The translations under genes and the position numbers were made by a program. Shown piece after piece: positions 1-50,230 of a DNA stretch of 50,230 bases. Numbering within the stretch: the stretch's first letter is position 1; each line of letters opens with the position of its first letter. The notes below the pieces were generated by a model. It was not told the origin of the DNA. It ran no database searches and saw only the letters and a list, made by a program, of their open reading frames with translations. The DNA is taken from the IMG/VR virus record IMGVR_UViG_3300030012_000996, positions 1 through 50,230 of that record; one strand, 5' to 3'. The DNA comes from a virus.

Positions 1-77
1 GATCCAGTGTCGGTATATTCATAGAAACTGCTTTCCTCTGGCAACCAAAAGGTGTAGCCTGAAAACTCGTTCTTATC
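1..77. repeat. Terminal direct repeat, left copy (circular overlap)
   Basis: Bases 1-77 are identical to 50154-50230. A gene reads through the join without a frame break, so this is the overlap of a closed circle rather than two separate copies. The length of exactly 77 equals a common assembler word size, so it is probably produced by assembly of a circular or circularly permuted molecule and not a biological terminal repeat. Confidence 0.95.
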
Positions 78-27485: not shown

Positions 27486-27866
27486 ATGCAAGACGGAAGA
27501 TTTAGCGGAGACATGGATAGAAACGAGGTAGAAATGGACTTGAACAAGTTCATGGCTATGGTTGAGGAGATTGGGGCCCTTAAGGATAAAATCAGGGAAC
27601 TAGAAGATGCTACAAACGTAAACCCGCATCAGAAATGGATTCACTTAGCGCAGGCCGTAGACTCCTGGCGCATATTTCCCAGAGTGTTCCTAAGCGTTTA
27701 CATATTCTTGCTTTACTACTCAACAATGTGGTTTATGGCATTAGAGGAACCAAGCCTAGAGCAAAGTGGTCTCATATCTATCATAGTAGGTGCTGGGGCG
27801 GCATGGTTCGGTTTATACGCAGGCACAAGCGGTGCAAGCAAGAGTTTTAAAGGAGAAGATAAATAA
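27486..27866 (+). CDS. Holin-like membrane protein, 126 aa
   Basis: A coiled N-terminal region (EVEMDLNKFMAMVEEIGALK, residues 12-38) is followed by two membrane segments: FPRVFLSVYIFLLYYSTMWF (about 64-83) and GLISIIVGAGAAWFGLYAG (about 95-113). The short polar turn between them and the charged C-terminus suit a class II-like holin, and similar two-helix proteins close the tail operon in other marine phages. It has an AGGAG site and is the last gene of unit 2, 7 bases before a strong terminator. Confidence 0.65.
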   Translation: MQDGRFSGDMDRNEVEMDLNKFMAMVEEIGALKDKIRELEDATNVNPHQKWIHLAQAVDSWRIFPRVFLSVYIFLLYYSTMWFMALEEPSLEQSGLISIIVGAGAAWFGLYAGTSGASKSFKGEDK

Positions 27867-28214
27867 AAAAAAAGAGAGCCGAAGCTCTCTCTTTTTCGCT
27901 CAATTCACCGATTGACTAACTAGATTCATTGTAAAGCTACTCCTAAGAGTGTATATGCACCTGACTTTGAGACTTGATCCGCCGATCTTATGCTTCCTAG
28001 TTTGCGACTAAGACTTCTCATTACCAGTCAATAACTATGCAATCTTTCTTATATTGCTATGTTAACGCCTTCTGCTATATTCTCACCTAAAAAGTTGATA
28101 AGTCTTTTTATTTTGCACTATCTTTAAAAGATAGGGTGAACTTCTCTTTTTACATCAGAGTGGGTTAATTAATCCCTGTCTATCAATCTGATGCGTCAGC
28201 TCTCCATTAACATA
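27866..28214 (-). ncRNA. Candidate structured leftward non-coding RNA, about 345 nt
   Basis: The stretch 27867-28370 has no convincing gene. A leftward promoter of the phage's own type (site S2, -10 CATAAT at 28225-28220) faces into it, and the minus-strand UUCG terminator closes it. In between, the minus strand can form many hairpins: CATCAGA/TCTGATG (28194-28188 and 28159-28153), CTATCTT/AAGATAG (28134-28118), GCAAT/ATTGC (28057-28039), CTTAGT/ACTAGG, GATC-GGCG-GATC, ACTC-TTAG-GAGT and TCAAT/ATTGA (27915-27900). The only leftward reading frame over 25 codons is 31 residues without a ribosome site. Existence as an RNA is inferred, not shown. Confidence 0.5.
27873..27896. terminator. Bidirectional intrinsic terminator with UUCG loop on the minus strand
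   Basis: AGAGAGC (27873-27879) pairs with GCTCTCT (27884-27890). On the plus strand the loop is CGAA and CTTTTT follows, ending unit 2. On the minus strand the loop is TTCG, the most stable tetraloop, and eight T follow (27872-27865), so it is an even better terminator for a leftward transcript coming from 28.2 kb. Confidence 0.9.
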
Positions 28215-28219
28215 TGATA

Positions 28220-28261
28220 ATTATGTCTGCATAAAAAATAAAGTAAACCCTTTTTGGAATA
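28220..28261 (-). promoter_or_regulatory. Leftward motif promoter into the gene-free stretch (site S2)
   Basis: The 18-mer at 28244-28261 matches the consensus with one change (C for T at 28250). Leftward, GGTTTA is followed after 18 bases by CATAAT (28225-28220), the same layout as at units 1, 4 and 7. It lies 110 bases before the unit-3 start, so it could also serve the rightward direction, but I see no matching rightward -10 at that spacing. Confidence 0.55.
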
Positions 28262-28319
28262 TATTTTAATTTTTTTTTCTTGGGTGTTATGTTCAGCTAT
28301 GATAGGATTTACAAGACTG

Positions 28320-28373
28320 CCCTAAGACTAGGGATAATTTGGCAAAGCCATAGTCATTTCAGGATTGACTATG
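28320..28373 (+). promoter_or_regulatory. Three tandem leader hairpins; the last traps the start codon
   Basis: CCCTA/TAGGG (28320-28333, four-base loop), TGGC/GCCA (28340-28350, three-base loop) and CATAGTCA/TGACTATG (28349-28373, nine-base loop). The last hairpin is a perfect eight-pair stem; its 3' arm contains the ATG (28371-28373) and its loop contains the ribosome site AGGA. Hairpins two and three share two bases, so they compete. This suggests translational control of the first unit-3 gene. Confidence 0.65.
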
Positions 28374-49748: not shown

Positions 49749-50230
49749 ACTATCTCGTAATCCTTAGTAACTATGCCAATATCCTTGTTACCTCTGAAGT
49801 GAGCTTTGACAAAGCTGATTTTTCCGTCTCTATATCTTCTGATGTGCTTCCTGACAGCGTGGAATGCTCTACCTTCGCTGTTCCCAGTGCTTTTACAATC
49901 ACCCTCTGTCGTTCCAAACAAATCAAGTTTCAAAACCTTGTGCTCATACTTAGGCTTTGCGCGTAACTCCGAAACGGAAAACTTTTTGCTCAAAGGCACT
50001 AACTTAGCGTTTTCCTTAGTGATTCCTTTCACACTAGATGTGTTAGTTATCTGTGGATAGGTAAGCATAAGACATAACCTACAATGAACGTTGAGTATCA
50101 TACCAACGAAATTGTTTAGGCTTGCGTTGTTGTACATACCGCCGTGTGTGTCCGATCCAGTGTCGGTATATTCATAGAAACTGCTTTCCTCTGGCAACCA
50201 AAAGGTGTAGCCTGAAAACTCGTTCTTATC
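49733..50230 (-). CDS. Junction-spanning phage protein, C-terminal part
   Basis: The remainder of the 355-residue protein that starts at 647; bases 50154-50230 repeat 1-77, so the unique part here is 49733-50153. It holds SDTHGGMYNNASLNNFVGMI and a Cys/Leu-rich stretch, and ends in EGRAFHAVRKHIRRYRDGKI, SFVKAHFRGNKDIGIVTKDY. This basic end (HxVRxHxRRxxxGKxxxVxxHxRG) is one I recall as the C-terminus of many unrelated-looking phage proteins; its function is not known to me, but the charge suggests nucleic-acid or virion binding. Confidence 0.8.
   Translation of the reverse strand, partial: DKNEFSGYTFWLPEESSFYEYTDTGSDTHGGMYNNASLNNFVGMILNVHCRLCLMLTYPQITNTSSVKGITKENAKLVPLSKKFSVSELRAKPKYEHKVLKLDLFGTTEGDCKSTGNSEGRAFHAVRKHIRRYRDGKISFVKAHFRGNKDIGIVTKDYEIVNKAH
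50154..50230. repeat. Terminal direct repeat, right copy (circular overlap)
   Basis: Identical to bases 1-77. Removing one copy closes the genome to a circle of 50,153 bases, and the leftward gene then runs uninterrupted. Confidence 0.95.

What the first reader, a model, noticed from the sequence alone, without database searches (positions are those of the whole stretch)
27866..28261. A probable leftward non-coding RNA in the only long gene-free stretch
Seen: 504 bases without a convincing gene; a copy of the phage's leftward promoter element (S2) at its right end with a CATAAT -10 at the same spacing as the other copies; at its left end a hairpin whose minus strand has a UUCG loop and eight T; and at least seven short hairpins between. 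Inference: the phage makes a structured RNA of about 345 nt under the same early control as its replication genes, possibly a regulator of host or phage RNA. This is the strongest candidate for something undescribed.
Basis: partly seen in the sequence, partly recalled or inferred. Interest (0 to 1): 0.78.

Follow-up and report, generated by a model that had tools for sequence, protein, structure and literature searches.

The report
Accessory early RNA gene in marine phage
A marine phage carries, at a spot where its relatives have nothing or swap in small early genes, a self-contained transcription unit that very probably makes a roughly 345-nucleotide RNA that codes for no protein; what the RNA does is unknown.

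Summary
Most of the sequence observation holds. The stretch 27867-28370 has no convincing gene. An exact copy of a phage-specific early promoter (S2: ATTCCAAAAARGGTTTACT, 16-nt spacer, CATAAT) points left at 28260-28220. A UUCG-loop terminator with eight U lies at 27897-27866. The 'seven hairpins' are chance: without the terminator the RNA folds no better than shuffles (z +0.42). Relatives explain the rest. In most marine relatives the two flanking genes touch; in the closest colinear relative the gap is only a 95-nt leader. This junction is a cargo slot, with S2-driven leftward small-protein cassettes in two contigs. About 66 genuine S2 copies were found; 63 are followed within 99 nt by an ATG reading frame. 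Three are not: this one, one at the same slot in another phage, and one elsewhere in a third. The second RNA exists in two phages under different promoters, yet is about three times more conserved than synonymous sites (11.9% vs 40.3%, p about 1e-7), so untranslated RNA cargo at this slot is under selection at least once. The three RNAs share no sequence, and this one has no relative, so its own function is unproven. Best reading: an accessory ('moron'-like) early RNA gene, probably trans-acting.

The parts
27867..28295 (-). inserted transcription unit (cassette), right edge approximate
   Evidence: flanking genes touch or are separated only by the 80-95 nt leader in relatives
28242..28260 (-). 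S2 promoter element ATTCCAAAAAGGGTTTACT, including the -35 TTTACT (28247-28242)
   Evidence: element found in about 46 IMG/VR contigs and absent in reversed-pattern controls
28220..28225 (-). -10 hexamer CATAAT, 16-nt spacer
27868..28213 (-). predicted untranslated RNA, about 345 nt (ends inferred from promoter and terminator)
   Evidence: no ORF above 31 aa; no remnant protein; 3 of about 66 S2 copies lack a downstream gene
27866..27897 (-). intrinsic terminator, C(UUCG)G loop, eight U; the complementary strand could weakly terminate rightward transcription
27486..27866 (+). left flanking gene, phrog_10198 small membrane-type protein (unknown function)
28296..28370 (+). conserved leader, probable rightward promoter of the right flanking gene
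   Evidence: aligned with G067, L126, L140, L148
28371..29480 (+). right flanking gene, Asn/Thr-rich repeat protein (phrog_20531); 28371 is the ATG, 28365 the TTG used in the tool calls

Best explanation
27867-28295 is an accessory, independently transcribed cassette ('moron'-like) inserted in a cargo slot between two late genes of a marine siphovirus-like phage. Host RNA polymerase, at the phage's S2 early promoter, makes a leftward RNA of about 345 nt that ends at the UUCG terminator and is not translated. Shown by sequence comparison: the slot, the insertion, the promoter and terminator, the lack of a gene, and selection on an analogous RNA at the same slot in another phage pair. Inferred: that this RNA is made, its ends, and that it acts in trans early in infection (on host RNA, protein or defence), as small early cargo usually does.
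For: Flanking genes touch in most relatives: next gene within 30 nt in 125 of 141 distinct junctions. The closest colinear relative G067 has S2 before the same three genes but an empty 95-nt junction. S2 is exact and group-specific, 0 in reversed controls. Of about 66 genuine S2 copies, 63 have an ATG frame of 35 aa or more starting 40-99 nt downstream; window 28260, L063:4750 and L182:1316 do not. At the same junction S2 drives leftward protein cassettes in L398 (three frames of 55-90 aa plus smaller ones) and L225, and a different promoter drives one in L148. At the same junction L063 and L055 carry an untranslated region with frame-breaking indels and no shared ORF. It has 40/336 substitutions against 29/72 at 4-fold sites of its flanking genes, p 9.8e-8. 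The conservation starts at the predicted start site although the promoters differ (S2 vs TTGCAT/TATAAT). No leftward gene lies beyond the terminator that the RNA could be a leader for.
Against: No relative with this RNA was found, so selection on this sequence cannot be shown. Its body folds no better than shuffles. It shares no sequence with the L055/L063 or L182 RNAs. No transcript data. No target found.
Confidence: 0.62

Rival explanations
1. Decayed or emptied cassette: the slot once held an S2-driven small-protein operon whose genes were lost; promoter and terminator remain and any transcript is junk.
For: The same slot holds S2-driven small-protein cassettes in L398 and L225; no conservation can be shown for the window RNA; its folding is unremarkable.
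Against: No protein remnant in six frames against 430 held loci; promoter and terminator are intact; two other S2 copies also lead into untranslated RNA, and the same-slot L055/L063 RNA is strongly conserved.
Confidence: 0.22
2. A very small protein or peptide is encoded: the 31-aa frame at 28021-27926 and/or the 9-aa frame at 27929, which follows a TAGGAG Shine-Dalgarno and overlaps the 31-aa stop (ATGA).
For: The 9-aa frame has a good ribosome site; the overlap resembles coupled genes.
Against: The 31-aa frame has no ribosome site and no relative, and a frame of that length is expected by chance in 345 nt at 36% G+C; all other S2 genes start 40-99 nt from S2, these nearly 200 nt or more further.
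Confidence: 0.08
3. A cis element: the cassette insulates the tail module from the downstream module by termination or by transcription against the late operon, with no product acting in trans.
For: The terminator abuts the left gene's stop and is partly bidirectional; the right gene has its own conserved leader.
Against: Most relatives have no insulator there and run the two genes together; in L055/L063 conservation covers the whole RNA and no terminator is found.
Confidence: 0.08

Closest known systems
Phage morons / prophage accessory loci (PMC7067206 and the literature it cites)
   Same: extra DNA between genes that are adjacent in relatives, with its own promoter and terminator, opposed to the late genes
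   Different: encodes no protein; promoter is the phage's own early element; no integrase or repressor was recognised among the proteins scanned, so the lysogenic role of classical morons is not implied
Phage-encoded non-coding RNAs such as the nine candidates of prophage BTP1, incl. OOP (PMC7067206)
   Same: short phage transcript without a protein
   Different: not antisense to a phage gene; no sequence relation found; sits in an exchangeable slot
Rfam families
   Same: none
   Different: no match at gathering score in the window, nor convincing weak ones in the stretch

Membership tests
phage moron / accessory cassette | inserted between genes adjacent in relatives | tested here: met
phage moron / accessory cassette | own promoter | tested here: met
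   S2 plus -10 by sequence
phage moron / accessory cassette | own terminator | tested here: met
phage moron / accessory cassette | expressed independently of the lytic programme or in lysogeny | not testable with these tools
   no transcript data; S2 also drives early replication-side genes
L055/L063-type slot RNA | sequence similarity to the conserved RNA | tested here: not met
   (nhmmer)
L055/L063-type slot RNA | same junction, strand and length, no ORF (S2 promoter shared with L063 only) | tested here: met
any Rfam RNA family | covariance-model match at gathering score | tested here: not met
structured (ornate) phage RNA | folding stability or covariation beyond chance | tested here: not met
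   z +0.42 without terminator; no relative for covariation

The most novel reading that the evidence does not exclude
A group of marine phages uses one promoter type and one insertion slot to exchange early cargo that is sometimes small proteins and sometimes unrelated untranslated RNAs; these RNAs are a new set of early host-takeover or counter-defence RNAs.
Probability: 0.3. Interest if true: 0.75.

Novelty: new member of a known kind. Interest (0 to 1): 0.5.

Why it matters
Phage accessory slots are mined for small anti-host and counter-defence proteins. If the same slots also carry untranslated RNAs, as the conserved L055/L063 RNA suggests, such surveys miss a part of the cargo. The S2 element gives a simple, specific way to list early transcripts, coding and non-coding, in an uncultured marine phage group.

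Tried and rejected
Rfam at gathering and permissive thresholds: none convincing. tRNA/tmRNA: none. DNA similarity in phages: nothing but the common terminator. An exact 22-mer of the RNA in IMG/VR: none. Homology between the window RNA and the other two RNAs: none. Conserved structure in L055/L063: on the joint consensus fold, substitutions avoid pairs (4/144 vs 36/192), but this is circular and vanishes when the fold comes from one sequence alone (P 0.19-0.26); rejected. Third hit of an L055 18-mer (L172): inside a coding gene, chance. Antisense targets at phage gene starts: best energy no better than shuffled RNA. Host through S2 in bacterial genomes: six hits, about the number chance gives for a 19-mer; the one inspected does not look like phage promoter DNA. 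Relaxed S2 hits L378, L404 and others lack a -10 and look like chance matches inside genes.

Full report
What is in the sequence. The window is a virus record with a 77-bp identical terminal repeat, 42% G+C, and head, tail and replication genes of a siphovirus-like phage. Between 27866 (stop of a phrog_10198 gene) and 28371 (ATG of an Asn/Thr-rich protein) lie 504 nt without a gene. On the minus strand, from right to left, there is an S2 element (28260-28242), a -10 CATAAT (28225-28220), about 345 nt without a reading frame over 31 aa, and a terminator hairpin with UUCG loop and eight U (27897-27866).

S2 is real and specific. ATTCCAAAAARGGTTTACT occurs in 54 stretches on about 46 IMG/VR contigs, one to five copies per contig when two mismatches are allowed, and never in the reversed control pattern. 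It sits 16-17 nt before a TATAAT-like hexamer in most copies. In the window it precedes the leftward genes at 936, 36838 and 44887, so 'early' is inferred from the replication-side position. I take about 66 copies as genuine, after leaving out two matches without a -10 in unrelated contigs. In 63 of them an ATG frame of at least 35 aa starts 40-99 nt downstream. Three do not: window 28260, L063 4750 and L182 1316.

The stretch is an insertion in a cargo slot. In 125 of 141 distinct junctions of relatives the next gene begins within 30 nt of the phrog_10198 stop. The closest colinear relative, G067 (70-97% amino-acid identity for most shared genes), has S2 before the same three genes but only a 95-nt leader at this junction. 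That leader, probably a rightward promoter, is conserved with window 28296-28370, so the inserted part is about 27867-28295, bounded exactly by terminator and promoter. Other phages carry other things here: an S2-driven leftward set of small frames in L398, an S2-driven two-gene leftward cassette in L225, a leftward two-frame cassette with another promoter and a hairpin after the stop in L148, a small rightward gene in L123, and an insert of about 420 nt with a nuclease-like frame in L091-L122. L228, whose phrog_10198 protein is 99% identical to L063's, has only about 30 nt there.

A second untranslated RNA at the same slot is under selection. L063 and L055 share a region of about 340 nt with indels that break every frame and no shared ORF. 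L063 has S2 upstream; L055 has a different promoter whose -10 region (GTTGTTATAATAACTAYATAA) matches that of the L148 protein cassette. Upstream of the predicted start the two do not align well. Within the RNA 40 of 336 positions differ; at 4-fold degenerate sites of the two flanking genes 29 of 72 differ (Fisher p 9.8e-8). The transcribed sequence is therefore constrained while its promoter is exchanged. Conserved secondary structure is not shown: the apparent avoidance of pairs is circular and disappears in a non-circular test.

What cannot be said. Hence its own conservation is untested. The body of the RNA folds like shuffled sequence (z +0.42); only the terminator stands out. The seven hairpins are not evidence. 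No phage mRNA is a better target than chance. The host is unknown.

Mechanism. Most likely host RNA polymerase transcribes the cassette from S2 together with the early genes, giving a short untranslated RNA that acts in trans on the host or on a defence system. The first part is supported by sequence comparison, the second is inference from the company it keeps (small early cargo in an exchangeable slot). The main rival is an emptied cassette whose transcript does nothing; it is weakened by the conserved RNA at the same slot in L055/L063 and by the absence of any protein remnant, but not excluded.

Place among known things. It meets the structural features of a moron or accessory cassette (insertion, own promoter, own terminator; such loci often lie antisense to lytic genes, PMC7067206). 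It differs in making no protein. Phage non-coding RNAs as such are known (e.g. nine candidates in prophage BTP1, PMC7067206). So: a new member of a known kind, with an interesting pattern (protein and RNA cargo exchanged under one promoter type) that deserves a larger survey. S2 itself was not found described in the open papers held: one search returned 29 papers, and the ten listed were unrelated sequence matches.

Noticed in passing
L182:985-1316 (contig IMGVR_UViG_3300025137_000002): An S2-driven RNA of about 285 nt without a gene, ending in a long stem AAAGCTAG...CTAGCTTTTTTT; more G+C-rich and folds better than shuffles (z -2.4); no Rfam match. Between tail-region genes and a 2OG-Fe(II) oxygenase-like gene.
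   Followed up: partly
L063:4375-4750 and L055:2371-2730: A conserved untranslated RNA of about 340 nt under two different promoters, about three times slower in substitution than synonymous sites nearby.
   Followed up: yes
window 36838, 44887 and relatives L192, L197, L216: S2 mRNAs often share a leader with AAATTGA(T) and a small hairpin such as CGCTCACAGAGCAGG just before the start codon; looks like a shared 5' UTR element.
   Followed up: no
window 28296-28370: Conserved leader of the Asn/Thr-rich gene with TRTGATAVGAT and a GGCAAAGCC hairpin, present in several relatives; probably a rightward promoter.
   Followed up: partly
window 44938 and 39742, minus strand: Weaker S2-like elements (ATTCCAAAAATGATTATAA, ATTCCAAATATGAATTATA), one in tandem 50 nt from a good S2; tandem copies also occur in G066 and G070.
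   Followed up: no
L225:9457-10224: S2 cargo at the same slot with a weak SprT-like metallopeptidase match (HEYAH, below the Pfam cut-off).
   Followed up: no
window 1-77 and 50154-50230: Identical 77-bp ends, suggesting a complete genome of about 50.15 kb.
   Followed up: no
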